From an uncultured Opitutaceae bacterium (GTDB lineage Bacteria > Verrucomicrobiota > Verrucomicrobiia > Opitutales > Opitutaceae), in NCBI GenBank assembly GCA_903862935.1, contig CAIOZY010000013.1, positions 62,001-126,000 on the forward strand: a stretch of 64,000 bases of DNA. Direction: 5' to 3'. The translations under genes were made by a program, and so were the position numbers. This document shows positions 46,805 to 63,477 of the stretch, piece by piece. The notes under the pieces were generated by a model that made no database searches, was not told the DNA's origin, and was given only the letters and a program-made list of their open reading frames with translations. Numbering within the stretch: the stretch's first letter is position 1; every line of letters starts with the position of its first letter.

Positions 46805-47772
46805 GAGCCTGCCCCCTCCATGGGGTTGCGGTACTGCTCGTACGCGTCGATGATGCGTTGCACCAGCGGATGGCGGACGACGTCGGAGCCGCTGAAGGTG
46901 TGGAATTCGATGTTGGGAACGTCCCGCAGGACCTCCCGGGCCTCGAGGAGCCCCGATTGCTTGGCCCTGGGCAGGTCGATCTGGGTCACGTCGCCGGTCA
47001 CCACCATGCGGGAGTCCTCCCCCAGGCGGGTCAAAAACATCATCATCTGCTCCGGGGTCGTGTTCTGCGCCTCGTCGAGAATCACGAAGGTGTGGGAGAG
47101 GGTGCGGCCCCGCATGTAGGCTAGCGGGGCAATCTCGATCACGCCCTTCTCGGTGAGGCGGGCGGCATCCTCCGGCCCCATCATGTCGTGGAGGGCGTCA
47201 TAGAGGGGCCTCAGGTACGGCAGGATCTTCTCCCGGAGGTCCCCGGGAAGGAATCCCAGGGCCTCTCCGGCCTCGACGGCGGGCCGGGTGAGGACGAGCC
47301 GCTGGACCTCGTTTTGCAGCAGAGCCGACACGGCGGCCGCCATGGCCAGGTACGTCTTTCCGGTCCCCGCCGGGCCTATCCCGAAGACGATCGGGTGCTT
47401 GAGCATCGACTTCAGGTAGAGCTTCTGGGCGAGCGTCTTCGGAACGATGCTCCGGCGGCTGGTGGCGATGACGACCGGCTCGTCCAGGAGCGCCCTCAGC
47501 TGCGGGCCCTCGCCCCGGGCGAAGGATTCCAGCAGCCGCGCGAAATCCGGCGAGCGAATCGCCATGCCCTGGCCGCGCGCCTCGCGCAGAAAGTCGAAAA
47601 AGTCCTCGGCAAGGGCCAACGCGGGCGCCGGCGCGTCGAGTTTCAGCCAGTCCTCCCGCGTGGCGATCTTCACCCCCAGGGCCCGCTCGGCGTGGGCGAG
47701 GTTTTCTTGCCGGTCCGCGTAGAGCTGGCTCAGGTGGCGGGGGCTGGGAAAATGGATCGTCTTGGTCGGCAT
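46801..47772 (-). CDS. phoH: PhoH-family ATPase (PhoL/YbeZ type)
   Basis: 323 residues. P-loop GPAGTGKT (133-140), LTRPAVEAGEALGFLPGDL, PLAYMRGRTLSH, the Walker B FVILDEAQNTTPEQM and VTGDVTQIDLP are all typical. A short N-terminal domain precedes the ATPase. Members act with YbeY in RNA processing. It lies 4 bases after the HIT gene and overlaps pgpH. Confidence 0.95.
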   Translation of the reverse strand: MPTKTIHFPSPRHLSQLYADRQENLAHAERALGVKIATREDWLKLDAPAPALALAEDFFDFLREARGQGMAIRSPDFARLLESFARGEGPQLRALLDEPVVIATSRRSIVPKTLAQKLYLKSMLKHPIVFGIGPAGTGKTYLAMAAAVSALLQNEVQRLVLTRPAVEAGEALGFLPGDLREKILPYLRPLYDALHDMMGPEDAARLTEKGVIEIAPLAYMRGRTLSHTFVILDEAQNTTPEQMMMFLTRLGEDSRMVVTGDVTQIDLPRAKQSGLLEAREVLRDVPNIEFHTFSGSDVVRHPLVQRIIDAYEQYRNPMEGAGS

Positions 47773-47776
47773 CCGG

Positions 47777-48259
47777 CTATGCCTTGGTCGCCTGGGTCAG
47801 CCGGGCCCAGACGGCATCGAGGGACTGGGGGAGAATCCGGGTGTGGCCGACGACGGGCATGAAGTTGGTGTCCCCGGTCCAGCGCGGAACGATGTGGGCG
47901 TGCAGGTGGGCGATGCTGCCGCCGGAGGCGGAACCCAAGTTGAAACCGACGTTGAAACCGTCGGGCTTCAGGACGGCGAGCATGCGCTTGCCGCGGACAA
48001 TCTCCTCCATCAGGTCGGAGCGCTCCTCCGCGGTAAGCTCCTCCAGGTCGGCGACCTCGCGGAACGGCACCGCTAGAAGGTGGCCGGGGTTGTACGGAAA
48101 ACGGTTGAGGAGCAGGTAGGAGAGGGCGGATCGGTGGACGATCAGGGCCGCCCGGTCATCCCCGAGGCCGGGTAGTTCGGAGAACGGCCGGAGCATCGAG
48201 GCCGGATAGCGCGGGGCCTCGATGTAGTCCATGCGCCAGTAAGGGTGCAGCTGATGCAT
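47777..48259 (-). CDS. HIT-domain nucleotide hydrolase/transferase
   Basis: 160 residues. The histidine triad is HLHAHIV (118-124). Earlier LLNRFPYNPGHLLAVPFREV and FNVGFNLGSASGGS match the Ap4A phosphorylase/hydrolase branch of HIT proteins. The exact nucleotide substrate is unknown. It is the first gene of HIT-phoH-pgpH-ybeY-DUF502-recO. Confidence 0.92.
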   Translation of the reverse strand: MHQLHPYWRMDYIEAPRYPASMLRPFSELPGLGDDRAALIVHRSALSYLLLNRFPYNPGHLLAVPFREVADLEELTAEERSDLMEEIVRGKRMLAVLKPDGFNVGFNLGSASGGSIAHLHAHIVPRWTGDTNFMPVVGHTRILPQSLDAVWARLTQATKA

Positions 48260-48364
48260 CGTGTCAAAGAGGCGAGATCAAAAGCACTTTCGGGGCCAAA
48301 GTCAAAGGCGGTCGGGCGGGGGCATTCCCTGGAGGAAAGGGGATAACGGATAGGCTTAACCCTC

Positions 48365-48370
48365 TATAAT
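48365..48370 (+). promoter_or_regulatory. Possible -10 element of waaA promoter
   Basis: A perfect TATAAT hexamer lies 42 bases before the waaA start, in an AT-rich patch that is rare in this DNA. The matching -35 (around GATAAC, 48342-48347) is poor. It falls in the 152-base divergent gap between waaA and the HIT-phoH operon. Confidence 0.4.
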
Positions 48371-48411
48371 TAATTGACTTACTTCGGGTTGGAGAGCACG
48401 CTCTGAGGCCC

Positions 48412-49710
48412 GTGATCTGGCTGTACCGCCTGCTCTTTCCGCTGATCGTGCTTGCGATGGCCCCGCATTACCTGTGGCGAATGCGGCGCCGCGGCGGCTA
48501 TGCGAAGCGTTTTGCGCAGCGGTTCGGAGCCCACCAGGTGCCCGCCCGCTCGCGAAAAGCCCGGCGAATCTGGCTTCAGGCGGTCAGCGTCGGGGAGATC
48601 CACGCGGTCGGGCCGGTCGTCAACGCCTTGGCGCGGGACGGGGTTGAGATCTACCTGACGACGACCACCAGCACGGGGTACCGGCTCGCCACGGAGCGCT
48701 ACTCTGGGCGGACCCTCGGAATCGGGTATTTTCCACTCGATTGGTGGCCGTTCTCGAGCTGGGCCTGGCGCCGCATCGCGCCGGACGTCGCCGTTTTGAT
48801 GGAGGGCGAGCGCTGGCCGGAGCACGTCCGCCAGGCCCGCATCCGCGGCGTCCCGGTGATCAACATCAACGCGCGGCTCTCCGACCGGACCTTCGCTCGG
48901 CTTTCCACCTGGGGAAAGCGGCTGCCCTCGTTGACGAGGCTTCTTCTCGGCGGGGTGACCCGGACCCTGCCGTGCTCGGCCCGCGACGAGGAGCGCTTCC
49001 GGCAGCTCGGCGTCGACCCGCGCAGCCTCACGACAACGGGAAACCTGAAGCTCGACGTCCCGCTGCCGCCGCTGGATCAGGCGGAGCGCGCCCGGCTCCG
49101 GAAAGGACTCGGGCTTCCCGAAGGGCCGATCCTGGTTGGCGCGTCGACCTGGCCCGGAGAGGAGGAGGCGCTTTTGGGTGTCCTGCGGGCTGTCCGCGAA
49201 GCCGGAATCGGTTGCACATTGCTGATCGTCCCGCGGCATGCAGAGCGGCGCTTTGGAATCGAGAAACTACTCAAGGCCAGCGGATTGCGGTTCCACTTTC
49301 GCTCGAAGGGCCCCGCCCCAGGGGAGGTCGACGTGGCGGTCGGGGACACGACCGGAGAACTCCGCAAATGGGTGCAACTGGCCGACCTGGTCTTTGTTGG
49401 GAAGAGTCTGCCTCCTCACACTGAGGGGCAGACCCCCGTCGAGGCCGCGGCGGCCGGAAAGCCGCTGCTGTTTGGGCCGGGCATGAGCAATTTCGCGGAC
49501 ATTGCCAAGGACCTGCTCGCACGCGGAGCGGCGCGGCGGGTCCAAACCCCCAAAGAACTCGAGGCTGCAGCAAAGGAGCTGCTCGGCGATCCCGAACGCT
49601 GCCGGGCGCTAGCGGCCGCCGGGGCGGCATGGCGGGCGGAGAACGGCGGAGCCGCGGCGCGGACCGTCGAGGTCATCAGGGAGTGCCTGGCTCGAGCTGG
49701 CCGGCGCTAG
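48412..49710 (+). CDS. waaA: 3-deoxy-D-manno-octulosonic acid transferase
   Basis: 432 residues with an N-terminal hydrophobic anchor (WLYRLLFPLIVLAMA). Transfers Kdo to lipid A precursor at the inner membrane. The catalytic Glu is E62 in the SVGEIHA motif. The GT-B halves show IYLTTTTSTGY, FPLDWWPF, MEGERWPE and the C-terminal DTTGELRKWVQLADLVFVGKSLPPHTEGQTPVEAAAAGKPL. GTG start. Its last 35 bases overlap the 3' end of the convergent plcP-like gene. Confidence 0.95.
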   Translation: MIWLYRLLFPLIVLAMAPHYLWRMRRRGGYAKRFAQRFGAHQVPARSRKARRIWLQAVSVGEIHAVGPVVNALARDGVEIYLTTTTSTGYRLATERYSGRTLGIGYFPLDWWPFSSWAWRRIAPDVAVLMEGERWPEHVRQARIRGVPVININARLSDRTFARLSTWGKRLPSLTRLLLGGVTRTLPCSARDEERFRQLGVDPRSLTTTGNLKLDVPLPPLDQAERARLRKGLGLPEGPILVGASTWPGEEEALLGVLRAVREAGIGCTLLIVPRHAERRFGIEKLLKASGLRFHFRSKGPAPGEVDVAVGDTTGELRKWVQLADLVFVGKSLPPHTEGQTPVEAAAAGKPLLFGPGMSNFADIAKDLLARGAARRVQTPKELEAAAKELLGDPERCRALAAAGAAWRAENGGAAARTVEVIRECLARAGRR

Positions 49711-50512
49711 GCAGGGAATCGCTGTCGAGGTGCTCCTCAGGAGGCTCCTCGTCGGGCAGGGGGTACTCCCGCTGGAAGGTCGTGAAGTCGATCATCTCGA
49801 AGCGCCCGTCCCAGTGCTCAACGATCGCGGTAAGGGACTCAACCCAGTCCCCGGAGTTCAGATAGTGGATGTCGCCGAGCATCTTGTCGGCCGGGGTGTG
49901 GATGTGCCCGCACATCACCCCCGTGCATCCGCGGTTCCGCGCAAGTTGGGCGATATGCTGCTCGAAGTTTGAAACGTGGTTAACCGCCTCTTTCACCCGA
50001 GCCTTGATGGCCTTGCTCAAAGACCAGTATTCCAGACCGCGCCAGGCCCGGTAGGCGTTGTACGCGCGGTTGATCCGCAACAGCAGGTTGTACCCCCAGT
50101 CGCCCAGCCGGGAAAGGAACAGGAAGTTCTTGGTGATCGAGTCGAAGACGTCCCCGTGCAGGACAAGGTAGCGGCCCTTCGGCCCCTCGTGGACATGCTC
50201 CTCCACGATCGAGAAGTTCTCAAAGTTGAGCGGCAGGAGCCGGGATAGGATATCGTCGTGGTTTCCCCGCAGGTAGACTACTTCCGTGCCCCGTTTCTCC
50301 AACTTTTTCAGGACGATGCGGATAAAGCGGGTGTGCGTTCCATCCCAGCGTCCGCCGCTGCGCAGCTGCCAGCCGTCGATGATGTCGCCGTTGAGGATCA
50401 ATTTTGCGCAGCGGACGTTGCGCAGAAAGTGGTTGACCTCTCGGACGCGGCTTCCGGGGGCGCCAAGGTGCACATCCGAGAGAATGACGGTTCTAACGCG
50501 GAGTTTCGTCAT
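49676..50512 (-). CDS. plcP: PlcP-like metallophosphoesterase (phospholipase C type; annotated elsewhere as LpxH-like)
   Basis: 278 residues. Calcineurin-type metal sites: D13/H15 (SDVHLG), D43 (GDIIDGW), N84/H85 (GNHDD), H118 (LHGD), and H202/H204 (CGHIHTP). LpxH has GNRD at the fourth site and about 240 residues; here GNHD, the middle segment GLEYWSLSKAIKARVKEAV and the C-terminal YLNSGDWVESLTAIVEHW match my recall of PlcP, which cuts phospholipids to diacylglycerol under phosphate limitation in rhizobia. LpxH2 activity cannot be excluded. Last gene of the six-gene operon, 6 bases after the lipid kinase. Confidence 0.82.
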   Translation of the reverse strand: MTKLRVRTVILSDVHLGAPGSRVREVNHFLRNVRCAKLILNGDIIDGWQLRSGGRWDGTHTRFIRIVLKKLEKRGTEVVYLRGNHDDILSRLLPLNFENFSIVEEHVHEGPKGRYLVLHGDVFDSITKNFLFLSRLGDWGYNLLLRINRAYNAYRAWRGLEYWSLSKAIKARVKEAVNHVSNFEQHIAQLARNRGCTGVMCGHIHTPADKMLGDIHYLNSGDWVESLTAIVEHWDGRFEMIDFTTFQREYPLPDEEPPEEHLDSDSLPSAGQLEPGTP

Positions 50513-50518
50513 GGCACA

Positions 50519-51448
50519 TCAAATGGGGGAATGGGGAACCGGGCTCAGCGGGCGGGCCGCACGAAACGCCGGGGCCGCGACCACCCGGAGGCTGGCCGGG
50601 GCGAGCCTGATGCCCAGGGACTCCCGCTCGAGATAGGGTTCCCCGTCCGTGTGGATCAGGCCCGGGGCCGGCCGCTCCATGAGGAAACGCCGACCCCGCA
50701 GTCGCAAGACCCTAGGGCTGCGGTCGAACGATCCCAGAAAGAGCCGCGCGCTAAGGATCGCGGCTCCGACTGGCCCCACCGGCCGAACCGCGATCAAGTC
50801 GAGCATTCCGTCATCGGCGCGCGCCTCCGGCGCTATCCGTGCGTTATTGCCGTATTGGTCGGAATTGGCCACCGCCACCAGGATGGCCTCGACCCATTCG
50901 GTCCGCCCGTCGGCGATGATCCGGCAACGCTGAGGCCTCTGCGCAAAAAAAGCGCCCAGGGCTGTTCGGGCGTAGGCCGGCAGCCCGCGCCGGGTCAGCT
51001 GGTTGAAGCGGTGGCTGACCTCCGCATCGAGCCCGAAGCCCATGGCGTTAAAGAACGGCCTTTCGTTCACGGCCGCGGTGTCGATCTCGGCAACGGGCGC
51101 CCGCGGATCGCAGGCGAGGGCCAGGGCCCTTTGGAAGTCAGCCGGCAGGCACAGATGCCGGGCGAGCCCGTTGCCCGAGCCGCACGGCACCAGTCCAAGC
51201 TCGGTGCCCGTGCCCGTAAGGGCCTGGGCTACCTCGTTCATCGTTCCATCGCCCCCGACGCAGATCACTCGGGCAGTGCCCGCCGCCACGGCCTGCCGGG
51301 CGAGGGCGGTGGCGTGCCCCCGAGCTTGGGTGATGGCCAGTTCGGTGCCGGGCGGTTGGGAAGCCGTGAATCGGTGCAGCAGCGGGCCCAAACGCGCGGT
51401 GCGGTCCGCACGGCCCGAGCGGGGATTATGGATCAGGAGAAGCCTCAT
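50519..51448 (-). CDS. Diacylglycerol kinase-like lipid kinase
   Basis: 309 residues from ATG 51448. DAGK catalytic domain: IHNPRSGRADRTARL, VGGDGTMNEV (64-73) and VPCGSGNGLAR (87-97). C-terminal half is the usual beta-rich domain (DGMLDLIAVRP, IHTDGEPYLERE). Phosphorylates diacylglycerol or a similar lipid at the membrane. Start overlaps the stop of the GT28 gene (ATGA). Placement next to plcP and two glycosyltransferases suggests that it recycles diacylglycerol to phosphatidic acid. Confidence 0.9.
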   Translation of the reverse strand: MRLLLIHNPRSGRADRTARLGPLLHRFTASQPPGTELAITQARGHATALARQAVAAGTARVICVGGDGTMNEVAQALTGTGTELGLVPCGSGNGLARHLCLPADFQRALALACDPRAPVAEIDTAAVNERPFFNAMGFGLDAEVSHRFNQLTRRGLPAYARTALGAFFAQRPQRCRIIADGRTEWVEAILVAVANSDQYGNNARIAPEARADDGMLDLIAVRPVGPVGAAILSARLFLGSFDRSPRVLRLRGRRFLMERPAPGLIHTDGEPYLERESLGIRLAPASLRVVAAPAFRAARPLSPVPHSPI

Positions 51449-52605
51449 GGCGCCGCCTCCCCGGCTTGGAGAACCGTGCGGACGATCACCCGCGCGGCGT
51501 CGGGGCGGCTGAGGGGTGCCATGGCTGCGTGCCAGCGCCGCCACAGCGCACCGCGTTGGGCGAATGCCTGGCGGAGGGCCGCGATCACCGCCTCGGTGCT
51601 CTCGGCGAGGTTCCCCGCACCATGGCGCAGGACCAGTTCGCAGTTGCCCTCCTCCTGGCCGGGAACGACTTGGCTGACGATCATCGGGCACTCCGCGGCG
51701 ATCGCCTCCTGGGTTGTGGCCCCGCCGGCCTTGCTGACGACGACATGGTGCGTCATGAGCAGTCGGGGGATCTCGTCAGTCCAGCCGAGGATGCGCGACG
51801 GCTTGGAGCGCCCGGCCGCCACGCGCTCCAGCCGCTTCCTCAGCTTTTCGTTCCGCCCCACCGCGCAGGTGACCTCGAACTCGGATCCCGACAAAAGCCG
51901 CTCCGCTGTGGCGGCGGCGTGGCGCGTGCCCGAATTGATGATATGGAGCACCCGCGGGGTCGCCCCGGAGCCGAGGTCGGGGCGGGTGAACTCCCCGGCG
52001 TGCCGCCTGAAATAGGGCGTGACCGGAAACCCGCTCACATTCAGCCGCTGCGGGTTGACACCCCGGCCCTCCATCACGGCCGCCGAGTCCGCGTTCGGCA
52101 CGAACCAGCCGTCGCAGGGGGAGCGCCACCACAGCGAGTGGATGCTGATTGAGTCGGTGACCACCGTGTAATGGGGAACCGGCAGCCGCCCCTGCTCGCG
52201 GAGCCTCTCGAGGAGGAACGGATAGACCGGGTAGGTGCTGCAGATCGCCCGGGGGCAGCCGGCCTCGAATCGCCTTGCAAGAAAGCGCACCTGGGGACGC
52301 AGGCTCGAGGAAAGCAGGCGCGGCAGCAGAGCGGAGCGGTCCATGAGCCCATAGATTCCGCGCCACAGGCGGGGCAGGCGGTTGATCAGCCCGATGTAGC
52401 CGGAGCGCACCAGAGCGGAGGTCCGGGGTGAGGTGAGCAGGAACAAGTCCAAGACCTCCGCCGAACCCTCGCCATGGAGCTCGTCGCACGCGGCGGCGAG
52501 GCCGCGGGCAGCGGCGTTGTGCCCCTCGCCGAAGCCGGCAGTAAGAATCAGCAAGTGCGGGCGCCCGCCGCCGATCGTCTCGCCTTCCTTATTCACCGGT
52601 TTCAT
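51445..52605 (-). CDS. GT28 glycosyltransferase, MGDG synthase/UgtP-like
   Basis: 386 residues. N-terminal GFGEGHNAAARGL is the MGDG-synthase motif (GxGHxxAA), STYPVYPFLLERL and VVTDSISIHSLWW fit its acceptor domain, and VVVSKAGGATTQEAIAAECPMIVSQVVPGQEEGN is the donor-binding loop shared with MurG. Such enzymes put glucose or galactose on diacylglycerol. The sugar is not predictable here. It lies 4 bases after the GT4 gene and overlaps the kinase. Confidence 0.9.
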   Translation of the reverse strand: MKPVNKEGETIGGGRPHLLILTAGFGEGHNAAARGLAAACDELHGEGSAEVLDLFLLTSPRTSALVRSGYIGLINRLPRLWRGIYGLMDRSALLPRLLSSSLRPQVRFLARRFEAGCPRAICSTYPVYPFLLERLREQGRLPVPHYTVVTDSISIHSLWWRSPCDGWFVPNADSAAVMEGRGVNPQRLNVSGFPVTPYFRRHAGEFTRPDLGSGATPRVLHIINSGTRHAAATAERLLSGSEFEVTCAVGRNEKLRKRLERVAAGRSKPSRILGWTDEIPRLLMTHHVVVSKAGGATTQEAIAAECPMIVSQVVPGQEEGNCELVLRHGAGNLAESTEAVIAALRQAFAQRGALWRRWHAAMAPLSRPDAARVIVRTVLQAGEAAP

Positions 52606-52609
52606 GGCG

Positions 52610-53827
52610 TCATGGCTCCCCGCAGCGGGCCTGTGCTGATGTGAGCTCTCCGGGCCCCTGAACAGCTGAGATTAGGTCGGCCTCAAAGCCGGATACCACC
52701 CTGTCCCACGAATGCCCGCGCACGGAAGCCGCCGCAGCGCCACGCAGACGTTTGCGCAGGTCCCTGTCTTCGGCAAGTCTTACTGCGGCCGCAACCAGAG
52801 CGTCCGGGTCTGCGCACGGGACCGACAGCCCGTTGTCATCGTTTCGAACGAAGGTCCGCGCAGCGGCGTAGTCAAAGGCCGCTACCGCCAGGCCGCTGGC
52901 CAGGGCCTCGGTCAGCACGTTTCCAAAGGTCTCCGAAAGGCTCGCGTGGACGTAGATGTCCGCCGAGGCGTAGGCCTGCGCCAGCTCTTCCGGGGGCACG
53001 AAGCCTGTGAAGATCCCATCCGGCATCTCCCGCTCAAGGTTGCGTCGAACCGGACCGTCCCCGACAAGCACAAAGCGGCAGCGCGGGTTGGTCTGCCTCA
53101 TCCCTCTGAAGGCCCGGAAGAGCAGGCCGTAGTTCTTCTCCGGGGCCATGCGGCCAGCGTGGAGCACCACCGGATCCTCCGGCCCGGCGCCCCAGCGGCC
53201 CCGCAGGGCGAGGGAGCGCAGCGCGGGGCTGAACTGGCCGGTGTCAATCCCTCGGGAGAGCACCCGGAGGTTCTCGAACCCGTCCGCCTCGAGTTCGGCG
53301 CACAGGGCCTTTGTCGGCGCGAACGTCAGGCGGGTTCGATTGTGCACCCAGCGGAGCCATCCAAGCGCAGCTCGCCTGAGAGGAGCGATCCCGTAGTGGC
53401 GGGTGTAGAGGTGGAAGTTTGTGTGAAAACTCGAGGTTACGGGGATCCCGGCGCCCCGCGCTGCTGAAACCGCCGAGGCGCCCAGCGGCCCCTCCGTGGC
53501 TACGTGCACCAGATCGGGTCGCCGCTCCCTCCAGGCGCGCTGGAGGCGCCGGCGGGCGGGAAGCCCGAGGCGCAGCATCGGATAGCCGGGGATCGGGACA
53601 CCGGGCATGGGCACCTGCCTATAGTCCGGGTGGGGCAGGGTCGGAAGGTCCCGGCGCCTGGGCCTGTAGACGGTAACCTCATGCCCCCTCCGGCCCAGTT
53701 CCCGCGCGATGACCCCAAAGGTCATGGCGACCCCGTTAATCTCGGGAGGAAAGGTTTCCGTTACCAGGTCGATTTTCAGGTGATGCGGGGGTGCGGCCGT
53801 TTGGACGACGGAGAATCGACGCCCCAC
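52610..53827 (-). CDS. GT4 family glycosyltransferase
   Basis: 405 residues. GT-B fold: IDLVTETFPPEINGVAMTFGVIARELGRRGHEVTV at the N-terminus, SSFHTNFHLYTRHYG, LHAGRMAPEKN and the C-terminal E-x7-E (SETFGNVLTEALASG). It resembles diacylglycerol- or mannolipid-glycosyltransferases of the type that follow MGDG synthase. GTG 53827 start; no ATG is available near the conserved start. Starts 23 bases after the EIIA gene, probably cotranscribed. Confidence 0.9.
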   Translation of the reverse strand: MGRRFSVVQTAAPPHHLKIDLVTETFPPEINGVAMTFGVIARELGRRGHEVTVYRPRRRDLPTLPHPDYRQVPMPGVPIPGYPMLRLGLPARRRLQRAWRERRPDLVHVATEGPLGASAVSAARGAGIPVTSSFHTNFHLYTRHYGIAPLRRAALGWLRWVHNRTRLTFAPTKALCAELEADGFENLRVLSRGIDTGQFSPALRSLALRGRWGAGPEDPVVLHAGRMAPEKNYGLLFRAFRGMRQTNPRCRFVLVGDGPVRRNLEREMPDGIFTGFVPPEELAQAYASADIYVHASLSETFGNVLTEALASGLAVAAFDYAAARTFVRNDDNGLSVPCADPDALVAAAVRLAEDRDLRKRLRGAAAASVRGHSWDRVVSGFEADLISAVQGPGELTSAQARCGEP

Positions 53828-53850
53828 GCTACAAGCCCGTGGCGATCAGG

Positions 53851-54717
53851 TTACGGTTTGGTTAATCCGGCGCTGGGTGCTGCGGCCGGCACCGGCAACT
53901 CCTGGACAGGCAGGATCGCCACGCACTGGTACAAAACCCGTCCGCCGGCATAAGACGTGGACCCGGCGACAAAACACTGCGCCCCGGCCGCAGCGAACGG
54001 CGCTCCGGCGGCGAGGCTCTGGGCAAGGGCGGACTCCTTTTCGAGCGCGACCGTCCATTCCGCCTCTGGGGCGAGGACGACGGGAGGAGCCCCCTGGGTG
54101 ACAAGCACGGAGAAAGTGACCCCGCGGGCGCCCCGAGGCCCCGGGGCCGCGGCCGCCTCCGCGGGCGCGGACACCGGCGCCGGAACCCCTTGCGCATGCT
54201 TAACCTCCAGGCGGATCATCCGCGCCACGGCCTCCGGGGCGGAGTCGCCCAGGCCAGAGCTCACCCAGTCCAGCAGTTGGTTGCGGACTGCGTTCAGGTC
54301 CGTGGCCCGCGCAATCGGCTCAATGCCGCCGCTCTTGCGGATGGCCTTAACCAGGGTGGAAATCTCCTTGAGGTAAACGTTCTTCTGGGCCCCGGGTATG
54401 TAGTACATCACCACCAGGTGCACCGGCATTGCGTCGGTGGCCCCGTAGTCAACCCCGCCCGAGGACCACCCGATCGCGCAGAACAGCTCGCCCTCGTCCC
54501 GGCGCGCCCGCACATGGGGCACGGCAACGCCAAGCCCGATGCCGGTGTTGCACTCCCGCTCCCGCCGGGTGACCTCCTCGCCCGCGTCCGTGCCGGCCTC
54601 GATGTCAGGATTGGCGTCGAGGATCCGAGCGAGGAACGCCAGGACCCTTTCCTTGTTCGCTCCTTCGGGCAGCTCGAAGAGCCTGCCGTCCTGGAGTGCG
54701 GTGAGGATGCTGCGCAT
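53851..54717 (-). CDS. PTS EIIA type-2 (fructose/nitrogen) domain protein with extra C-terminal domain
   Basis: 288 residues. EIIA-2 domain at about 1-150 with the phospho-His H68 in TGIGLGVAVPHVRA. Residues 200-288 form a second small domain after an Ala/Pro linker that I cannot name. No EI, HPr, EIIB or EIIC gene is visible, so a regulatory role like EIIA-Ntr is more likely than sugar uptake. It lies 3 bases after mgtA, which suggests it senses phosphorylation state and affects Mg2+ import or the genes behind it. Confidence 0.85.
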   Translation of the reverse strand: MRSILTALQDGRLFELPEGANKERVLAFLARILDANPDIEAGTDAGEEVTRRERECNTGIGLGVAVPHVRARRDEGELFCAIGWSSGGVDYGATDAMPVHLVVMYYIPGAQKNVYLKEISTLVKAIRKSGGIEPIARATDLNAVRNQLLDWVSSGLGDSAPEAVARMIRLEVKHAQGVPAPVSAPAEAAAAPGPRGARGVTFSVLVTQGAPPVVLAPEAEWTVALEKESALAQSLAAGAPFAAAGAQCFVAGSTSYAGGRVLYQCVAILPVQELPVPAAAPSAGLTKP

Positions 54718-54720
54718 AGG

Positions 54721-57309
54721 TCAGTCCGTCCCGAAGCGTCGGTAGAACCAAGTCTTAACGACATGCGTTAGCACGCTGTAGAGCAAGGCAAACAGCGCCA
54801 GCCACCCGAAGAACACTGCGGGAAGGGGCACCAGCCCGAGGAATGCGGCCATGGGCGAGAACGGCAGCCAGGCGCCAAGGGCCATGATCGTGATCGTCGT
54901 CAGCATCATCGTCCGGCTGGCGCGGCTCTGGAAGAAGGGGATCCGCTGGGTGCGGATAATGTGGACGATGAGGGTCTGAGTGATCAGCGACTCGACGAAC
55001 CAGCCGGTGTGGAAAAGCTGCTCCAGGTGGGCCTTGGCCGCCTCCGTCGTCCCCGCGGCGGAGAAGGCCACGCAGCGGAAACCGTAGAGCATGAGGAAAA
55101 AGGTCGCGTAGTCGAACAGCGAGCTGATCGGGCCGATGAAGAACATGAAGTTCTGGATGCTTCGAATGTTCCAGCGGCGCGGCCGCTCAAGGTATTCCTG
55201 GTCGACGTTGTCCAGCGGAATTCCGACCTGGGACATGTCGTAAAGCAGGTTGTTGACCAGAACCTGGATCGGCGCCATCGGCAGAAACGGCAATAGGAAG
55301 CTCGATCCCAGGTAGCTGAACATGTTCCCGAAGTTGGAGCTGGCCCCCATCTTGATGTACTTGATGATGTTGCCGAACACCTTGCGCCCCTCGAGGATTC
55401 CGTCCTCAAGGACGAGCAGGCTCTTCTCGAGCAGAATCAGGTCGGCTGACTCTTTGGCGACGTCGACGGCGGTGTCCACGGAGATCCCCACATCGGCGGC
55501 CTTCATCGCCAGAACGTCGTTGATGCCGTCCCCCATGAATCCGACCACGCGCCCGCCCGCCCTGAGGGTCTTGATGACCTTCTCCTTCTGGTCGGGCGTG
55601 AGCCGCGCGAAGACGTTTGCCTCCTCGACCTCGCGGGCGAAGGTGGCGTCGTCCATAGCCGCCAGCTGCGGCCCAATCAGGATTTTCGTGATCGGCATCG
55701 CCACGTCGTCGCAGACCTTCCGCGTGACCAGTTCGTTGTCCCCGGTGAGAATCTTGACCGCCACGCCCGACCGGCGGAGCGCGTCGATGGCGCGGGCCGA
55801 CGTCTCCTTTGGCGGGTCGAAAAACGCGATGTAGCCCAGCAGCACGAGCTCCGACTCGTCGGCCACGCTGAAGGTCAGCTTCGATCGGTCGAACTCCCGG
55901 TAGGCGATCGCCAGGACCCTGTAGCCCTGCGCGCTCAGGCTGCGGTATTCGTCCATCAGGTCATCGCGGATCAGCTGGATCAGCGGATTGATGTCCTCGT
56001 CGACCTGGTAGTTGTTGCAGGCCGAAGCCACTTCCTCGACCGCACCCTTGCAGATGAGAACGTGACGGTCCTCGTAGTCGATCACCACCGACATGCGCCG
56101 CCGCTTGAAGTCGAAGGGGATCTCGTCGACCTTCTTGCAGTTGCGCTCCACGTCGAGTTCGCTGTGCGCGAGGATGGCCCGGTCCAGCAGGTTGCGCAGT
56201 CCGGTCTGGTAGAAGCTGTTCATGTACGCGTACCGCAGCACGTCCTCGCTCGAGCGGCTCGTCACGTCGACATAGCGCTCGAGCACGACGTGGTCCTGCG
56301 TCAGCGTGCCCGTCTTGTCCGTGCACAGGACATCCATCGCTCCAAAGTTCTGGATCGCGTGAAGGTGCTTCACGATGACCTTCTTGCGGGACATGAGCAG
56401 CGCCCCCTTAGATAGGCACACCGTCATGATCATCGGCAGCATCTCCGGGGTGAGGCCGACGGCCACCGAAAGGGCAAAGAGCAGCGCCTCAAGCCAGTTG
56501 TGCTCCTTGAAGCCTACGATCAGGAATACCACCGACACCATCACGACCATGAAGCGGATCATCAGCCAGGTGAAGGCGCTGACGCCGCGGTCAAAGCTGG
56601 TCGGATCGCGCTTGGACAGGAGCTTAGCGGCCAGCGAGCCGAACTGGGTCTTCCCGCCGGTGGCCAAGACGACCGCCCGAGCGGAGCCGCTCAGCACGTT
56701 GCTTCCCATGAAGCAGGCGTTGCTGCACTCGAAGGGCACGCGGCTGGCCGGCTGGTTTGCGTCAGCGTTTTTCTCGACCGGCATCGATTCGCCGGTGAGG
56801 GCCGACTGCGTGACGAAGAAGTCCTTGGCGGACAGGATGCGCACGTCCGCCGGGATCAGGCTTCCGGCGGCGAGGACAACGACGTCTCCGGGGACGATGT
56901 CCTCGAGCGAAATCTCGGTCTCCCGCCCGTCGCGCAGGACAGTGACGGTGGTCTTGACGAGCTTCTGAAGTTTTTCGACCGCCCGGGAGGACCGGGTCTC
57001 CTGGAAGTAGGAGAGCACGACACTGAGAAACACCATTGCGGCGACGACGACGGTCGAGGCCGTGTCCCCGGTCACGTAGCACAGAACTGCGATGACGAGT
57101 AACTGGACGACCAGGGGGTTTCGGCACCGGTTGAGCAGATCCAGGACGGCCGAGTGGCGTTTGCCCCCGGCCACCGTATTGGGGCCGGCCTCGTCGAGCA
57201 GCTTCGCGGCGGCCTCGGAGCTGAGCCCGCCCACTGAGGTGCCGAGCCGGGCGAGTAGCTCGGCCTCGGGGAGGGCGTACAGCGTGGACGGGGGAGGCGA
57301 GGGGGGCAT
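54721..57309 (-). CDS. mgtA: Magnesium-importing P-type ATPase MgtA
   Basis: 862 residues from ATG 57309; the frame to 57555 adds a leader with no ATPase features. P-type ATPase with the phospho-Asp D331 (DKTGTLT), LTGES, GDGINDVLAMKAADVGISV and the P3B ion-channel motif VGLTPEMLPM (284-293). The C-terminal helices (FGNMFSYLGSSFLLPFLPMAPIQVLVNNLLYDMSQ and the EYLERPRRWNI) are typical of MgtA/MgtB. It imports Mg2+. First gene of the six-gene operon ending in plcP. Confidence 0.95.
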   Translation of the reverse strand: MPPSPPPSTLYALPEAELLARLGTSVGGLSSEAAAKLLDEAGPNTVAGGKRHSAVLDLLNRCRNPLVVQLLVIAVLCYVTGDTASTVVVAAMVFLSVVLSYFQETRSSRAVEKLQKLVKTTVTVLRDGRETEISLEDIVPGDVVVLAAGSLIPADVRILSAKDFFVTQSALTGESMPVEKNADANQPASRVPFECSNACFMGSNVLSGSARAVVLATGGKTQFGSLAAKLLSKRDPTSFDRGVSAFTWLMIRFMVVMVSVVFLIVGFKEHNWLEALLFALSVAVGLTPEMLPMIMTVCLSKGALLMSRKKVIVKHLHAIQNFGAMDVLCTDKTGTLTQDHVVLERYVDVTSRSSEDVLRYAYMNSFYQTGLRNLLDRAILAHSELDVERNCKKVDEIPFDFKRRRMSVVIDYEDRHVLICKGAVEEVASACNNYQVDEDINPLIQLIRDDLMDEYRSLSAQGYRVLAIAYREFDRSKLTFSVADESELVLLGYIAFFDPPKETSARAIDALRRSGVAVKILTGDNELVTRKVCDDVAMPITKILIGPQLAAMDDATFAREVEEANVFARLTPDQKEKVIKTLRAGGRVVGFMGDGINDVLAMKAADVGISVDTAVDVAKESADLILLEKSLLVLEDGILEGRKVFGNIIKYIKMGASSNFGNMFSYLGSSFLLPFLPMAPIQVLVNNLLYDMSQVGIPLDNVDQEYLERPRRWNIRSIQNFMFFIGPISSLFDYATFFLMLYGFRCVAFSAAGTTEAAKAHLEQLFHTGWFVESLITQTLIVHIIRTQRIPFFQSRASRTMMLTTITIMALGAWLPFSPMAAFLGLVPLPAVFFGWLALFALLYSVLTHVVKTWFYRRFGTD

Positions 57310-57427
57310 CGAGTCGGCGGGTTGCGGCTTCGCCCGCCAGATCCTCGGCCCAGCGGCGTCGCCACATCTATTTGCAATCCGACGCTGGGTCGGCCGCAAG
57401 CTGTAATCTCCGGTCGCCCGAAGTTTT

Positions 57428-57457
57428 ATTATGCCAGGCACTGGGCCGTTATGCGAA
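57428..57457 (-). promoter_or_regulatory. Putative mgtA operon promoter
   Basis: On the minus strand, TTCGCA (57452-57457) and CATAAT (57428-57433) are 18 bases apart. Transcription would start near 57421, giving a leader of about 110 bases before the mgtA ATG. The leader holds a CCGAC/GTCGG hairpin (57379-57393) and a competing CCCAGCG/CGCTGGG pairing (57349-57355 with 57383-57389). Confidence 0.45.
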
Positions 57458-57516
57458 GCGGAAAAATTTGGGTTGCGCAGCCGATAGCGTTCTCTAACTT
57501 TGAACTTTTTCAGCGG

Positions 57517-60141
57517 ATGCATTCGCACGGACCTAAGCGATTCTACACTCCACATTCGCTCGAATTTTGGTTCGAAAGGCTTTCCGATGAGTGGGCTGAC
57601 TCGTTTACTGCCAGCGAGTTAGAGGAGGGGCGCCGGATCTACCGCGCCGGCGAGGTTCGCGAATTGGAGCTCACTGCAAAGGATGCGATTGTGCACCGCC
57701 GAATCGACAAGAAGGACGAATATGCGGTGATCGAGTGGTCCCCAACCGGCCTTTCCGTGCGTTCCTCGTCCACGGACAGGGCGATTGCTCAAGCCCTCGC
57801 AGTGGCGGGCCTTCATGAAATCGAGGAACTCGTCGCCGACGAAATTCCTCCTATCCCGGGCGAGTTTCCTCAGGACGGGGAGGCGCCCGCCGACGGTGGT
57901 TCCGCTCCGGCCGGCCCGGACCGTCGGGAGCCGAGTCCGCCCTCCCGCCCGGCAGACCCTGAGAAGCACGCCGAGCGCGGCCCGGAGGCGCCGGTCCGGC
58001 AGGGCACCGGCCCATCCCGGGCTTTGCTCGTCGTCTTTAAGATCAAGCACGCGGGGCTCACCTTTCAGGCCTTTTGGTCGGAGAGCGGGGGCAAGACACG
58101 CCTGCCTGCGCTCGGTCCCGACACCCACGCCAACGGCAACGGGCACATCTCCAGCGGAGAGCGGGCTAAGCTGATCGGCCTGGCCGCCTATGCGCGGAAA
58201 GCCCACTTCCGCTACGACCAGGACACGGGGGTGTACCTGCTCGAGTCCCTGGTTGAGATACCCAATTTCCTGAAATCGACCCTGCCGGCATGGCGCAGGG
58301 TCTTTGCGATCGAATTGGACGAGAGGGCAGCGAACCTAACGCGCGGCACCCGCGCGGTGGAGATCGAGGCCGTCGCCGAGCGGGCGCCCGGCGGGCGCCC
58401 AGGGGCTGGCGGCGCCGAGGGTCTGAACCTGCGCTGGATCTTCCGTGCCGGCGAGCGGATGCTGACCGACCATGAGGTCAGCGCGCTGCTCAAGCGCGGC
58501 GGCCAGCCTGTCATTCTCCCCAACCTCGGCATTGTCTCGCTGGATGCTGCGCGCTGGGACTCCTACTGCGCCTGGAAAAAGGGCGCATCCGAGCATCCCG
58601 ATGGGGCGGCGCTGCCTCCGTACCTGATCTTCTCTCTGTTCAACGATTCGAGGCTCAAGGTCACCCTTTCTCCCGAGATCGAGGCCTGGCGCCAAAAGGT
58701 ACTGACCCATCCGGCGAACCCGCCCGAGGTGTCCGCGTGGGTGCGCCCCTACCAAAGGCGGGGAGTCGAGTGGCTTCATCACCTGTGCGAAGTGGGCTGC
58801 CACGGTCTGCTTGCCGACGAAATGGGTCTGGGAAAGACCCTCCAGGTGCTCTCGCTTCTTGTGGCGCGACCCATCACGGGCCGGCCCAGCCTGATCGTGT
58901 GCCCGGCGAGCGTGGTGCCCGTGTGGAGGGAGGAGATCGCTAAGTTCTTTCCCCATATTGTCTCGGACGTCCTGAAGGCGGGCCACGACTTCACGTCTCG
59001 CCAGGAGCCGGTTCTCTGGCTGGCCAGCTACACCCAGCTGCGAAAGCACCGGTCCCTGCTGGACGGGGTTGAGTTCGGGTACGCGATCCTCGACGAAGGG
59101 CAGTTCATCAAGAATCCCGACGCGAAGGTGACCCAGACCTGCTTCGCCGTGCGGGCCAGCCACCGGATCGTCCTAACCGGGACCCCGCTCGAGAACCGTC
59201 AGCTCGACCTGTGGAGCATCTTCCGCTTCTTGTTGCCAGGCCTGCTGGGCTCGCGGGCGGCGTTCGAGGCATCGCTTCAGGGGGACCGGGATGGAACGAT
59301 CACGCGCCTTCGGGCGCAGCTGGCCCCGTTCATCCTCCGCCGCACGAAGAGCGAGGTGGCCCAGGAGCTTCCCCCGAAAGTGGAGATGGACCTGATCTGC
59401 CCGCTGACCGATGTCCAGCGCTCCGAGTACGCGCGCATCTGCACCGAGGGGCTGGCTCGCCTGGGCGACGACGTGGGGGCAGCCATGCGGGAAAAATCGT
59501 TCGGCTTTCTCGCCCTTCTGACCCGGCTGCGGCAGACCTGCTGCGACCCGGACATGTTGCCCTGGCTCCACGCCCCCCTGTCCGACTCGGGCAAGATCAA
59601 TCTCTTGGTGGAGAAGCTGGCGGAGATCGTGGGCAGCGGCCACAAGGTCGTGATATTCTCCCAGTTCGTGCTCCTCCTGGGCAGGGTCCGCTCGGCTCTT
59701 GCCCAGCAATTCCCGGATCTTCCCCGTTATGAGCTGACCGGGATGACCCTGGATCGCCAGAAGCCGGTCCAGGAGTTCCAGGGCGCCCCCGGGGCGGCCG
59801 CCATGCTGGTGTCGCTGAAAGCCGCTGGGACCGGGATCACGCTCCATGCCGCCGACTATGTCTTTCTCCTGGATCCTTGGTGGAACCCTGCGGTCGAGGC
59901 CCAGGCTGTGGACCGCGTCCACCGGATCGGGCAGACCAACACGGTATTCGTGTATCGCATGGTCACCGCGGGCACGATCGAGGAACGGATCCAGGCCCTG
60001 AAGGCCTCGAAAAAGGACCTCTTTGACCGCCTGGTCGACGGGCTCGGCGGGGATTTCGATCTCAGCCGCCACTTCACCTCGCTCCGAAGTCTCGTTCAGC
60101 TCACCGCTCACGCCGAGCCCGAGGACAAGTCGGCGGGCTGA
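57517..60141 (+). CDS. SNF2-family DEAD/DEAH helicase
   Basis: 874 residues from ATG 57517 (an alternative ATG at 57451 would overlap the predicted mgtA -35). N-terminal about 150 residues contain a SWIM-like region that I cannot confirm as metal-binding. The SNF2 helicase has DEMGLGKT (434-441), DEGQ (526-529), LTGTPLENR, LLTRLRQTCCDP and, in the C-terminal lobe, SLKAAGTGITLHAADYVFLLDPWWNPAVEAQAVDRVHRIGQT. DNA-dependent translocase; role in repair, transcription or defence is unknown. Confidence 0.9.
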   Translation: MHSHGPKRFYTPHSLEFWFERLSDEWADSFTASELEEGRRIYRAGEVRELELTAKDAIVHRRIDKKDEYAVIEWSPTGLSVRSSSTDRAIAQALAVAGLHEIEELVADEIPPIPGEFPQDGEAPADGGSAPAGPDRREPSPPSRPADPEKHAERGPEAPVRQGTGPSRALLVVFKIKHAGLTFQAFWSESGGKTRLPALGPDTHANGNGHISSGERAKLIGLAAYARKAHFRYDQDTGVYLLESLVEIPNFLKSTLPAWRRVFAIELDERAANLTRGTRAVEIEAVAERAPGGRPGAGGAEGLNLRWIFRAGERMLTDHEVSALLKRGGQPVILPNLGIVSLDAARWDSYCAWKKGASEHPDGAALPPYLIFSLFNDSRLKVTLSPEIEAWRQKVLTHPANPPEVSAWVRPYQRRGVEWLHHLCEVGCHGLLADEMGLGKTLQVLSLLVARPITGRPSLIVCPASVVPVWREEIAKFFPHIVSDVLKAGHDFTSRQEPVLWLASYTQLRKHRSLLDGVEFGYAILDEGQFIKNPDAKVTQTCFAVRASHRIVLTGTPLENRQLDLWSIFRFLLPGLLGSRAAFEASLQGDRDGTITRLRAQLAPFILRRTKSEVAQELPPKVEMDLICPLTDVQRSEYARICTEGLARLGDDVGAAMREKSFGFLALLTRLRQTCCDPDMLPWLHAPLSDSGKINLLVEKLAEIVGSGHKVVIFSQFVLLLGRVRSALAQQFPDLPRYELTGMTLDRQKPVQEFQGAPGAAAMLVSLKAAGTGITLHAADYVFLLDPWWNPAVEAQAVDRVHRIGQTNTVFVYRMVTAGTIEERIQALKASKKDLFDRLVDGLGGDFDLSRHFTSLRSLVQLTAHAEPEDKSAG

Positions 60142-60150
60142 GGCCGCCGC

Positions 60151-61983: not shown

Positions 61984-62095
61984 CGGGACCCCTAGACTCA
62001 CACCCGGCCAGCCCGCTTGGGCAAGTGATTTGTGGGGGTAGGCCGGGCTTTGCAGGGAGAGAGAGGGGGGGCGTTAAGGCTCTATTTGCCGTCTT

Positions 62096-62139
62096 GTGAC
62101 CTCACCGTCACGAAATCGTCACATTTGGGGTACATTGTG
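62096..62139 (+). promoter_or_regulatory. Putative Pho box upstream of phosphate porin
   Basis: Four units at exact 11-base spacing: GTGAC (62096), GTCAC (62107), GTCAC (62118) and a weaker GGTAC (62129). PhoB sites are 11-base direct repeats with a TGTCA core, so the fit is good. A TACATT (62131-62136) could serve as -10, as PhoB promoters often lack a -35. The porin ATG is at 62182 and pstS follows. Regulation by PhoB-type protein is inferred. Confidence 0.65.
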
Positions 62140-62181: not shown

Positions 62182-63477
62182 ATGTCTCCAATCAAGTTCT
62201 TTAGGTTCTCGCTACTCAGCGGTGCAGCACTCGCCGTAGGCTCCGCGTTCGCGCAGACGACCGACTCGAGCCAGGCCATCCTTAACGCCCTTGTCCGGAA
62301 GGGTGTCCTGTCCGCCGATGAGGCGAAGCAGGTCGCCGCCGACGCAGCGAAGGCGGTTGCCGGGGATGACGTCGTCACCAACCCGGCCGACAAGTACATC
62401 AAGCGGCTCACCCTGACCGGTCGCTTCCAGGTGCAGTTCGCTGACCTCGGCACGGGCATCGCCAATGCCGCCGCGAATCCCGCGGCAACGCAGCACTTCC
62501 TGCTCCGCCGAATCTACCTGGGGACCCGGGTCGACTTCACGAACAGCCTCTCCGGCTATGTGAACTACGATTTCGCGAACGTCTCTTTTGACGCCGCCTT
62601 CATCGAGTGGAAACAAAGCGACGCTTTCGTGCTCGATGCGGGCCTGAAGAAGGTTCCGTTCAACTATGAAGAGGTCACCTCCAGCGGTTCGCTCAAGGCG
62701 ATTGAGCGCTCTACGGTGACCCGATTCTTCGACGAGCCGAACAACGGCCGGCGCCTGGGTGCTGCCAGCTACCGCACCGGACTGTATCTGAGCGGCACCG
62801 AGGGAGGCCTCTTTTACAGCGTGGCCGCGACCAACCCCGAACGCAACGAATACAGCGGCGATGGCACCAGCGGGCCGACGATCAACGGTAACGTTGGCGT
62901 AAACGGTGCGAGCACCAACACCAACAACAACATCGCCTACTTCGGCTGGGCCGGCTACGGCGACAAGTTCTCGGGCGGCACCTACAAGGTCGGAGTTGAA
63001 GGCGGCTTCCTGCCCGACCAGGGCGGTCCGGGCACCACGCTCGGGCAGGGCAACAACATCTCCGAGTACGGCGTCTTCGCGGACGTCGCGGCCGGGGATT
63101 TCAACATCCAGGCTGAATATCTGTCCGCCAAGGACGACCACGGCGTGTCCGCCACGCAGGATGCCAAGCCCACCGGTTATTGGGTCCAGCCCTCCTACTA
63201 CGTCATTCCGAAAGTCCTCGAGGCGGTTGTCCGCTACAGCTACATCGACTCCGATCATCGCGGCGTGGCGATCTCCGACGGAATCCGCTCGGCTCCGAGC
63301 GGCGGCACCATGGACAAGCTCTCCGAGTGGTATATCGGCGGCAACTGGTACATCCAAGGAAACGACGTGAAGCTGCAGGCCGGCTACATCCACGGAGAGT
63401 CCAAGGACACGGTTACGGGCGCCAGCGCCTCGGCCAAGACCGACGGCCTCCGCTCGCAGATGCAGATTAACTTCTGA
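62182..63477 (+). CDS. OprP/OprO-like phosphate-selective porin
   Basis: 431 residues from ATG 62182. Signal peptide (about 1-24, ends SAFAQ). A short helical coiled-coil stretch (LVRKGVLSADEAKQVAADAAK) precedes the beta-barrel. The pattern LRRIYLGTRVDFTNSLSGYVNYDF, DAFVLDAGLKKVPFNYEEVTSSGSLKAIERS and YFGWAGYGDKF is that of phosphate porins (PF07396-like). C-terminus ends in F (QMQINF) as outer-membrane proteins do. Directly upstream of pstS and behind a Pho-box-like site. Confidence 0.9.
   Translation: MSPIKFFRFSLLSGAALAVGSAFAQTTDSSQAILNALVRKGVLSADEAKQVAADAAKAVAGDDVVTNPADKYIKRLTLTGRFQVQFADLGTGIANAAANPAATQHFLLRRIYLGTRVDFTNSLSGYVNYDFANVSFDAAFIEWKQSDAFVLDAGLKKVPFNYEEVTSSGSLKAIERSTVTRFFDEPNNGRRLGAASYRTGLYLSGTEGGLFYSVAATNPERNEYSGDGTSGPTINGNVGVNGASTNTNNNIAYFGWAGYGDKFSGGTYKVGVEGGFLPDQGGPGTTLGQGNNISEYGVFADVAAGDFNIQAEYLSAKDDHGVSATQDAKPTGYWVQPSYYVIPKVLEAVVRYSYIDSDHRGVAISDGIRSAPSGGTMDKLSEWYIGGNWYIQGNDVKLQAGYIHGESKDTVTGASASAKTDGLRSQMQINF

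What the first reader, a model, noticed from the sequence alone, without database searches (positions are those of the whole stretch)
49676..57309. Six-gene operon joins Mg2+ import, a PTS EIIA protein and phospholipid-to-glycolipid conversion
The genes mgtA, EIIA, GT4, GT28, lipid kinase and plcP-like run on one strand with gaps of 3, 23, 4, -4 and 6 bases, and one promoter candidate precedes mgtA. Together they can cut phospholipid to diacylglycerol (PlcP), glycosylate it (GT28, then GT4) or return it to phosphatidic acid (kinase). Mg2+ normally bridges anionic phospholipid heads, so coupling import of Mg2+ to head-group replacement is a coherent physiological unit. The EIIA could be its sensor. 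I know PlcP plus glycosyltransferase pairs from rhizobia and marine bacteria, but not this full arrangement.
Basis: partly seen in the sequence, partly recalled or inferred. Interest (0 to 1): 0.8.

Follow-up and report, generated by a model that had tools for sequence, protein, structure and literature searches.

The report
Mg2+ importer beside Pho-controlled glycolipid genes
The six genes are real, but they look like two units side by side: a magnesium-import pair placed next to a set of lipid-remodelling genes that keeps its own predicted phosphate-starvation switch; in some related bacteria an ABC transporter that also looks like a magnesium importer stands there instead.

Summary
Genes, strand and gaps are as described, but the one-operon reading is not supported. 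A direct-repeat operator (period 11, Pho-box-like) lies at 53827-53867, between EIIA and GT4; the only stronger hit in the window (62083) precedes a phosphate porin and pstS. The lipid genes (GT4-GT28-kinase-PlcP) thus have their own predicted phosphate-starvation promoter, found widely in the family. mgtA-EIIA is a separate pair (24 of 24 close EIIA homologues lie beside mgtA). The Mg link is still probably not chance: in the window's genus 9 of 13 genomes carry mgtA-EIIA here, and the other 4 carry a fused-permease ABC transporter at this locus (one rearranged). In a second genus, at the other end of the lipid genes, one genome has mgtA-EIIA, two the ABC pair, two neither. Distant relatives of the ABC pair follow an M-box Mg2+ riboswitch in 5 of 5 Firmicute loci scanned, so it is probably a Mg2+ importer; but 49 of 56 ABC loci scanned show no such RNA upstream. 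Best reading: a Pho-controlled glycolipid cassette that more than once recruited an exchangeable Mg2+-import module. Expression, regulator binding and transport are untested.

The parts
54721..57309 (-). mgtA: P-type Mg2+-transporting ATPase (862 aa)
   Evidence: TIGR01524 1094.8 bits over cut-off 610.75; PDB MgtA 8uy7 E 1.2e-264; TGES, DKTGT, GDGIND
53851..54717 (-). EIIA-like protein (288 aa): EIIA type 2 domain at residues 17-148 with Pro67-His68, then a linker and a small C-terminal domain
   Evidence: PF00359 64.6 bits; PDB PtsN 3urr E 3.8e-5; P67-H68 invariant in 20 of 20 aligned; beside mgtA in 24 of 24 family genomes with a close homologue
53827..53867 (-). Pho-box-like operator of the lipid cassette: direct repeats, period 11; overlaps the last codons of EIIA
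   Evidence: matrix score 24.6, window site not in training; second-best hit of the 64 kb; motif
52610..53827 (-). GT4 glycosyltransferase; probable true start CTG at 53779
   Evidence: PF13439/PF00534; best named models are lipid glycosyltransferases, below their cut-offs; PDB PimA 2gej E 2.8e-20; start by comparison
51445..52605 (-). GT28-type diacylglycerol glycosyltransferase homologue
   Evidence: PF06925; PDB 9wde processive diacylglycerol beta-glucosyltransferase E 6.6e-21, 4wyi MGD1 E 2.3e-19; below NCBIfam cut-off
50519..51448 (-). YegS/BmrU-type lipid kinase
   Evidence: PF00781, PF19279; TIGR00147 123 bits over cut-off 118.65; GGDGT
49676..50512 (-). PlcP-like calcineurin-type phosphoesterase; 3' end overlaps the end of kdtA by 35 bases
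   Evidence: PF00149; SDVH, GNHD, GHIH; LpxH model PRK05340 35.6 bits against cut-off 134; overlap
62083..62123 (+). second copy of the operator, before the phosphate porin and pstS
   Evidence: score 27.5, best hit of the window
62182..63477 (+). phosphate-selective porin O/P, followed by pstS from 63500 (runs off the window)
   Evidence: PF07396 95.7 bits; PF12849 match G000:C13:125569-126429, ORF from 63500
57517..60141 (+). divergent SNF2-family helicase (hel): border of the slot that holds mgtA-EIIA or the ABC pair
   Evidence: PF00176; next to GT4 in many relatives without a transporter
48412..49710 (+). kdtA (waaA), convergent with plcP; border of the second slot seen in genus g6
   Evidence: PF04413

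Best explanation
The locus is two adjoining modules. Module 1 is a phospholipid-to-glycolipid cassette (GT4, GT28, YegS-type kinase, PlcP) behind its own Pho-box-like operator: when phosphate runs short a PhoB-type regulator switches it on, PlcP cuts phospholipids to diacylglycerol, GT28 and GT4 add sugars, and the kinase can return surplus diacylglycerol to phosphatidic acid. Module 2 is a Mg2+-import unit, MgtA plus an EIIA-type partner that probably tunes MgtA through its phosphorylation state. Mg2+ import has been joined to the lipid cassette at least twice, at different ends, and inside the genus the unit alternates, probably by recombination, with an ABC transporter that is itself probably a Mg2+ importer. 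Shown here by sequence: gene content, module boundary, the shared operator, repeated linkage, and Mg2+-responsive leaders before some ABC homologues. Inferred: enzyme products, PhoB binding, EIIA action on MgtA, the ABC substrate, and the physiological reason.
For: Operator: one-site-per-region motif search on 23 hel-GT4 regions gave log-likelihood 245.2 against 52.1-60.7 in ten shuffled sets; self-match at lag 11 of 0.51 against 0.18-0.31 at other lags. Outside the training sites it scores 13 or more at 24 of 43 family loci, at the window, and upstream of pstS in 9 of 12 loci of the genus. In all 13 genomes of the genus it lies with the lipid genes (scores 24.4-47.6; 10 of the 13 were training sites). 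Linkage: mgtA-EIIA in 9 of 13 and the ABC pair in 4 of 13 of the genus; second genus G166 mgtA-EIIA, G225 and G242 ABC, G080 and G208 neither; two further named Opitutaceae records fit the second arrangement (L162; L240, cut by its contig end). Separate origin: the nine mgtA and nine EIIA of the genus form starred clades without G166. Exchange: ABC-bearing G245 is sister to mgtA-bearing G226 in the flank tree at 99/98. ABC and Mg2+: M-box 56-195 bases upstream in two genomes of the Clostridium class, the only two carriers among 391 searched, and in three Enterococcus plasmids; M-box before MgtC-ABC in Tsukamurella, mgtC leader 610 bases upstream in Escherichia albertii; MgtC next door in Aureimonas; MgtA convergent in an acidobacterium. 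EIIA-mgtA pairing 24 of 24.
Against: No expression, binding or transport data. Search sequences are related, shuffles were mononucleotide, and the motif model places one site in every region by construction. The window's copy is among the three weakest of the genus (24.6). Three of 12 pstS loci of the genus lack the site in the stretch held (L270, L272, L274), and only 2 of 35 loci of other families of the order reach 13. Outside the genus mgtA-EIIA is not seen at the cassette in 17 of 18 genomes (some contigs are short) nor the close ABC pair in 7 of 9. 49 of 56 ABC loci scanned have no Mg2+-responsive RNA upstream, a few with little upstream sequence; 48 of 50 ABC-bearing genomes have no M-box at all, Opitutaceae included. 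The Clostridium and Enterococcus homologues measured are 33-42% identical to the Opitutaceae permease. mgtA itself has no such operator, so one shared switch is suggested only for G225. Three genomes (G115, G181, G203) carry both mgtA-EIIA and a 44-46% identical ABC permease. The flank tree does not keep the genus apart from the outgroups.
Confidence: 0.6

Rival explanations
1. The ends of the lipid cassette are only permissive recombination sites; mgtA-EIIA and the ABC pair are passengers with no functional tie to the lipids.
For: In the genus the two modules alternate at one site like alleles. The lipid cassette keeps its own operator. Most mgtA-EIIA and ABC copies outside the genus are not at the cassette. 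In L133 ppk1 and a phosphatase fill the hel-GT4 slot.
Against: The same two alternatives occur in a second genus at the other end of the cassette. Under a rough model (27 carrier genomes outside the genus treated as independent, two adjacent positions among 3000 genes) two or more adjacencies have P about 2e-4. Both alternatives point to Mg2+.
Confidence: 0.26
2. One six-gene operon from one promoter upstream of mgtA, with EIIA as sensor of the whole unit.
For: Same strand, short gaps. No terminator-like site on the minus strand in the EIIA-GT4 gap; the nearest upstream one, 53995-53975, lies inside EIIA. Read-through is possible.
Against: Own operator with the lipid genes in all 13 genomes of the genus; called gap of 56-137 bases in the other eight mgtA-bearing genomes; promoter candidate at chance level; EIIA goes with mgtA also where no lipid genes are near.
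Confidence: 0.1
3. The PlcP-like gene is a UDP-2,3-diacylglucosamine diphosphatase (LpxH) and the cassette serves LPS synthesis, as its neighbour kdtA suggests.
For: Plasmid records name similar proteins UDP-2,3-diacylglucosamine diphosphatase; weak LpxH model match; kdtA next door.
Against: 35.6 bits against the LpxH cut-off 134. No match at E 1e-30 in 33 of 150 family genomes, among them single-contig G035 and G146, though whether these make LPS was not tested. It sits with diacylglycerol glycosyltransferase homologues and a Pho-like operator.
Confidence: 0.08

Closest known systems
PlcP-Agt phospholipid remodelling of marine bacteria and Pseudomonas aeruginosa (PMC4796936, PMC8528852; passages read)
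   Same: calcineurin-type phosphoesterase beside lipid glycosyltransferases, behind a Pho-box-like operator; PMC4796936 lists Verrucomicrobia among PlcP carriers
MgtA Mg2+ P-type ATPase
   Same: whole-length match over the curated cut-off, solved MgtA structures as nearest PDB relatives
   Different: paired with an EIIA-like protein; no Mg2+ riboswitch match in 46000-61000
EIIA-Ntr (PtsN) as regulator of cation transport; the discussion of PMC9239213 (passage read) cites its binding to KdpD and TrkA
   Same: EIIA domain with conserved Pro-His, gene tied to a cation transporter
   Different: below the PtsN cut-off, extra C-terminal domain, tied to MgtA rather than K+ systems
M-box-linked ABC transporter of Bifidobacterium breve, Bbr_0406-07 (PMC5746004; passage read)
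   Same: two-gene ABC transporter behind a Mg2+-sensing leader; its permease is filed there under COG4986
   Different: one genome, claimed only as metal homeostasis; whether our fused permease belongs to COG4986 was not tested
Coupling of Mg2+ shortage to PhoB/PhoR in Salmonella (PMC12351708, PMC9239213; passages read)
   Same: Mg2+ limitation and the Pho response are physiologically linked
   Different: there through MgtC, PhoU and PhoR; here suggested by gene linkage only

Membership tests
PlcP-Agt lipid remodelling pathway | PlcP-type phosphoesterase next to a lipid glycosyltransferase | tested here: met
   GT4 near plcP on the same strand in 12 of 13 genus, 56 of 66 other-genus and 20 of 35 other-family loci; that the GTs act on lipids is by homology
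PlcP-Agt lipid remodelling pathway | Pho-box control | tested here: inconclusive
   shared operator before GT4 and before porin/pstS; binding by PhoB not tested
PlcP-Agt lipid remodelling pathway | phospholipase C activity and glycolipid product | not testable with these tools
   needs enzymology and lipidomics
LpxH | curated NCBIfam cut-off | tested here: not met
   35.6 bits against 134
MgtA (TIGR01524) | curated equivalog cut-off and P-type motifs | tested here: met
   1094.8 bits against 610.75; motifs
PtsN / EIIA-Ntr | PtsN equivalog cut-off | tested here: not met
   TIGR01419 30.4 bits against 138.7
PTS EIIA type 2 domain | Pfam cut-off and conserved His | tested here: met
   PF00359 64.6 bits against 27; Pro-His invariant in 20 of 20
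PTS EIIA type 2 domain | EI and HPr in the genome to phosphorylate it | not tested
   no genome search was left for it
Mg2+-regulated ABC transporter (alternative occupant) | Mg2+-responsive leader RNA upstream | tested here: inconclusive
   7 of 56 loci scanned, including 5 of 5 loci known to be Firmicute; M-box in 2 of 50 ABC-bearing genomes, in one of the two upstream of the ABC pair
NrtB/CmpB-type ABC permease | solved relatives by profile | tested here: met
   CmpB 9u9z E 1.9e-15, nitrate permease 8w9m E 5.6e-13, each covering the C-terminal half of the fused permease; a periplasmic binding-protein gene was not searched for

The most novel reading that the evidence does not exclude
The fused-permease ABC pair is a widespread, so far unassigned class of Mg2+ importer that can stand in for MgtA; in Opitutaceae it and MgtA-EIIA are exchangeable parts of a Mg2+-phosphate-lipid homeostasis locus.
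Probability: 0.5. Interest if true: 0.8.

Novelty: new variant of a known kind. Interest (0 to 1): 0.65.

Why it matters
If true it ties two nutrient problems, Mg2+ and phosphate, to membrane lipids at one locus in bacteria outside the usual models, and shows that the link arose more than once. The alternation also gives a gene-context argument, joined by leader RNAs in other phyla, for the substrate of an ABC transporter whose ATPase public records name after nitrate/sulfonate/bicarbonate. Both claims can be tested directly by complementation and RNA-seq.

Tried and rejected
Promoter upstream of mgtA: chance level. Rfam in window 46000-61000: three matches, all below gathering scores. E. coli-type Pho box by plain consensus: no clear signal above shuffles. 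The first motifs found sit at fixed distance from the helicase gene hel and were masked (first 62 bases) before the search that gave the operator; six of 29 hel-GT4 regions, 100 bases or shorter, were dropped there. Genome-wide exclusion of mgtA-EIIA (24 of 150) and the close ABC pair (10 of 150): no overlap, but P = 0.16, not significant; three genomes carry mgtA-EIIA and a 44-46% identical permease. P-type ATPases near the ABC pair in L224 and L239 are KdpB, not MgtA. EIIA model: mean pLDDT 65.8, C-terminal domain about 95; no PDB match with E below 0.001. PDB relatives of PlcP by sequence: none at E 0.1. EIIA on plasmids: none at E 1e-8. The random-segment background contained training loci and is not used; those are.

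Loci read: 40 of the 47 other plcP genomes of the order sample (G001, G003, G048, G062, G064, G076, G100 not read) and 66 loci of 65 of the 110 plcP genomes outside the genus in the family sample. L067 starts inside mgtA, so its hel side is unseen; L141 starts inside GT4. Paper searches. Searches found no paper; one search found two, one of them the B. breve paper. Eight papers were seen as passages, the rest as listings. I make no wider claim of absence from print.
Full report
What is there. The six genes stand on the minus strand as described, with open frames and expected motifs. MgtA is clear by family cut-off and nearest solved structures. The EIIA-like protein has a Pro-His at 67-68, invariant in 20 of 20 aligned relatives. 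GT28 matches processive diacylglycerol glucosyltransferase and MGD1 structures. GT4 is nearest to PimA among solved structures, and no named model shown reaches its cut-off. PlcP-like misses the LpxH cut-off by far.

The lipid cassette is the older part. In the order sample 48 of 103 genomes have the PlcP-like gene; in 40 loci read, none has mgtA or EIIA near it. By script: of 35 loci of other families 20 have GT4, 3 GT28 and 2 a kinase near plcP; of 66 loci of other genera of the family 56, 50 and 34; of 13 loci of the genus 12, 13 and 12. In many relatives hel and GT4 are direct neighbours, so mgtA-EIIA most likely entered between them.

mgtA-EIIA is its own unit. Close EIIA homologues (E below 1e-60) occur in 24 of 150 family genomes and each lies beside an mgtA match. 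Of the 18 such genomes outside the genus only G166 has the pair at the lipid cassette; some of the other contigs are short. Neighbours elsewhere include a CorA-like gene (L087) and HlyD-type genes (L074, L077, L080).

The module boundary. A motif search on 23 hel-GT4 regions, hel end masked, found direct repeats with period 11; best sites score 14.3-26.9, against at most 10.7 in regions upstream of mgtA or the ABC permease. The model places one site per region by construction, so the support lies in the likelihood (245.2 against 52.1-60.7 shuffled) and the tests that follow. A 41-column matrix was made from 33 sites (23 of other genera, 10 of the genus, not the window). In the window two separate places exceed 15: 62083-62123, before a phosphate-selective porin and pstS, and 53827-53867, before GT4. 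In the PstS loci of the genus it hits in 9 of 12; of the three misses G189 has a hit about 1.5 kb upstream of pstS, in L069, and the 13th genome has no PstS match. Weaker PBP_like_2 loci (L276-L279) have no hit. Loci of the family not used in training: 24 of 43 reach 13. Control: 0.45% of 2000 random 410-base segments reach 13; 3 of 2,093,480 background positions reach 24. In other families of the order 2 of 35 reach 13. In the genus the site stays on the lipid side of the inserted module; in G189 it stands before GT28. Upstream of mgtA there is none. The name Pho box rests on the repeat geometry, recalled from E. coli, and on the shared porin/pstS sites.

The exchange. Of 13 genomes of the genus nine have mgtA-EIIA upstream of GT4 (hel is seen on the other side in eight; the ninth contig ends there) and four have an ABC pair: a fused permease of about 580 residues and an ATPase, in L065 with an AAA_assoc_C domain. 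In three of the four the pair lies between hel and GT4; in G189 it lies beside hel but the lipid genes are turned round and GT4 and kinase are not found there. In L061 the permease frame is in pieces, with ambiguous bases in the sequence. In genus g6 (five plcP-bearing genomes in the sample) the other end, between GT28 and kdtA, holds mgtA-EIIA in G166, the ABC pair in G225 and G242, and neither in G080 and G208. Two more named records fit this: L162 (hel, GT4, plcP, GT28, ABC permease) and L240 (ABC pair, kdtA; cut at the contig end). In G225 the genes GT4, plcP, GT28, permease and ATPase follow with gaps of -4, 3, 18 and 4. Trees: the nine mgtA and nine EIIA of the genus are starred clades (99/96, 100/97) that exclude G166; G166 goes with G133 and G202 in the EIIA tree at 94/89, below starring, and is unplaced in the mgtA tree. 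In the flank tree G245 (ABC) is sister to G226 (mgtA) at 99/98; that tree, rooted at the midpoint, does not separate the whole genus from the outgroups. So: alternation at one site inside the genus, and a separate linkage in g6.

The ABC pair and Mg2+. Searches scanned 56 distinct ABC loci of other organisms; seven have a Mg2+-responsive RNA upstream on the same strand. An M-box lies 56-195 bases before the permease in Clostridium sp. OS1-26, G636, Enterococcus gilvus and two E. raffinosus plasmids, and 286 bases before MgtC in the MgtC-ABC run of Tsukamurella; an mgtC leader lies 610 bases before the permease of Escherichia albertii with a small frame between. These include all five loci known to be Firmicute. 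In 391 genomes of the Clostridium's class only two carry the homologue, both with the M-box. The other three M-boxes of that Clostridium precede an MgtE match (TIGR00400, below cut-off, cut by the locus end), ApbE, and an MgtC-like frame (by eye) with a P-type ATPase. MgtC is also adjacent in Aureimonas; transporters annotated as Nramp or divalent-metal lie nearby in Thermus and Mycolicibacterium; MgtA is convergent in acidobacterium L198. Of 50 ABC-bearing genomes only two have any M-box; in the second it precedes an Nramp-like gene, not the ABC pair. M-boxes being rare outside a few phyla, this test says little for most carriers. A B. breve transcription map already places an M-box before a two-gene ABC transporter (PMC5746004, passage).

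How it would work. By the named pathways, low phosphate turns on the lipid cassette and glycolipid replaces phospholipid, as PlcP-Agt does in P. aeruginosa (PMC8528852, passages). Mg2+ shortage activates PhoB/PhoR in Salmonella (PMC12351708 and PMC9239213, passages). Cells that shed anionic phospholipid and cells short of Mg2+ thus meet in one response, which would favour placing a Mg2+ importer at the cassette. EIIA most likely regulates MgtA, by strict pairing and by the precedent of EIIA-Ntr on K+ transport cited in PMC9239213. This paragraph is inference.

Verdict. The coordinates hold; the single-operon reading does not. The Mg2+-lipid link is supported by repeated, alternating linkage and points to a candidate Mg2+ ABC importer. 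After checking, the odds of the main and the bold reading were lowered slightly (0.62 to 0.60, 0.55 to 0.50) because the flank tree, the constructed site counts and the genomes carrying both transporters are now told in full.

Noticed in passing
window:62083-64000: Phosphate-selective porin and pstS lie about 5 kb from mgtA with the same operator; a phosphate-response neighbourhood.
   Followed up: yes
window, upstream of hel, about 57309-57516: A conserved leader motif at fixed distance from hel in most loci read, perhaps its promoter.
   Followed up: no
L133:5151-8014: The slot between hel and GT4 holds ppk1 and a metallophosphatase on the other strand; L134 has a similar pair by eye.
   Followed up: partly
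G000 (own genome): 24 matches to PBP_like_2, where the other genomes of the genus have 0 to 2.
   Followed up: no
window:60151-62001: SulP-type sulfate permease with STAS domain between hel and the porin.
   Followed up: partly
L224, L239: K+-importing Kdp genes near the ABC pair in two acidobacterial loci.
   Followed up: partly
L189, L190, L206, L209, L214, L216: In these Acidobacteria loci the ABC pair follows a PPIase-like and a 4-alpha-glucanotransferase-like gene.
   Followed up: no
L087:11982-13070: CorA-like gene directly upstream of mgtA on the same strand in G178.
   Followed up: no
L242:1501-1694: M-box upstream of an Nramp-like gene in the genome of L196, titled Solibacteraceae.
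   Followed up: partly
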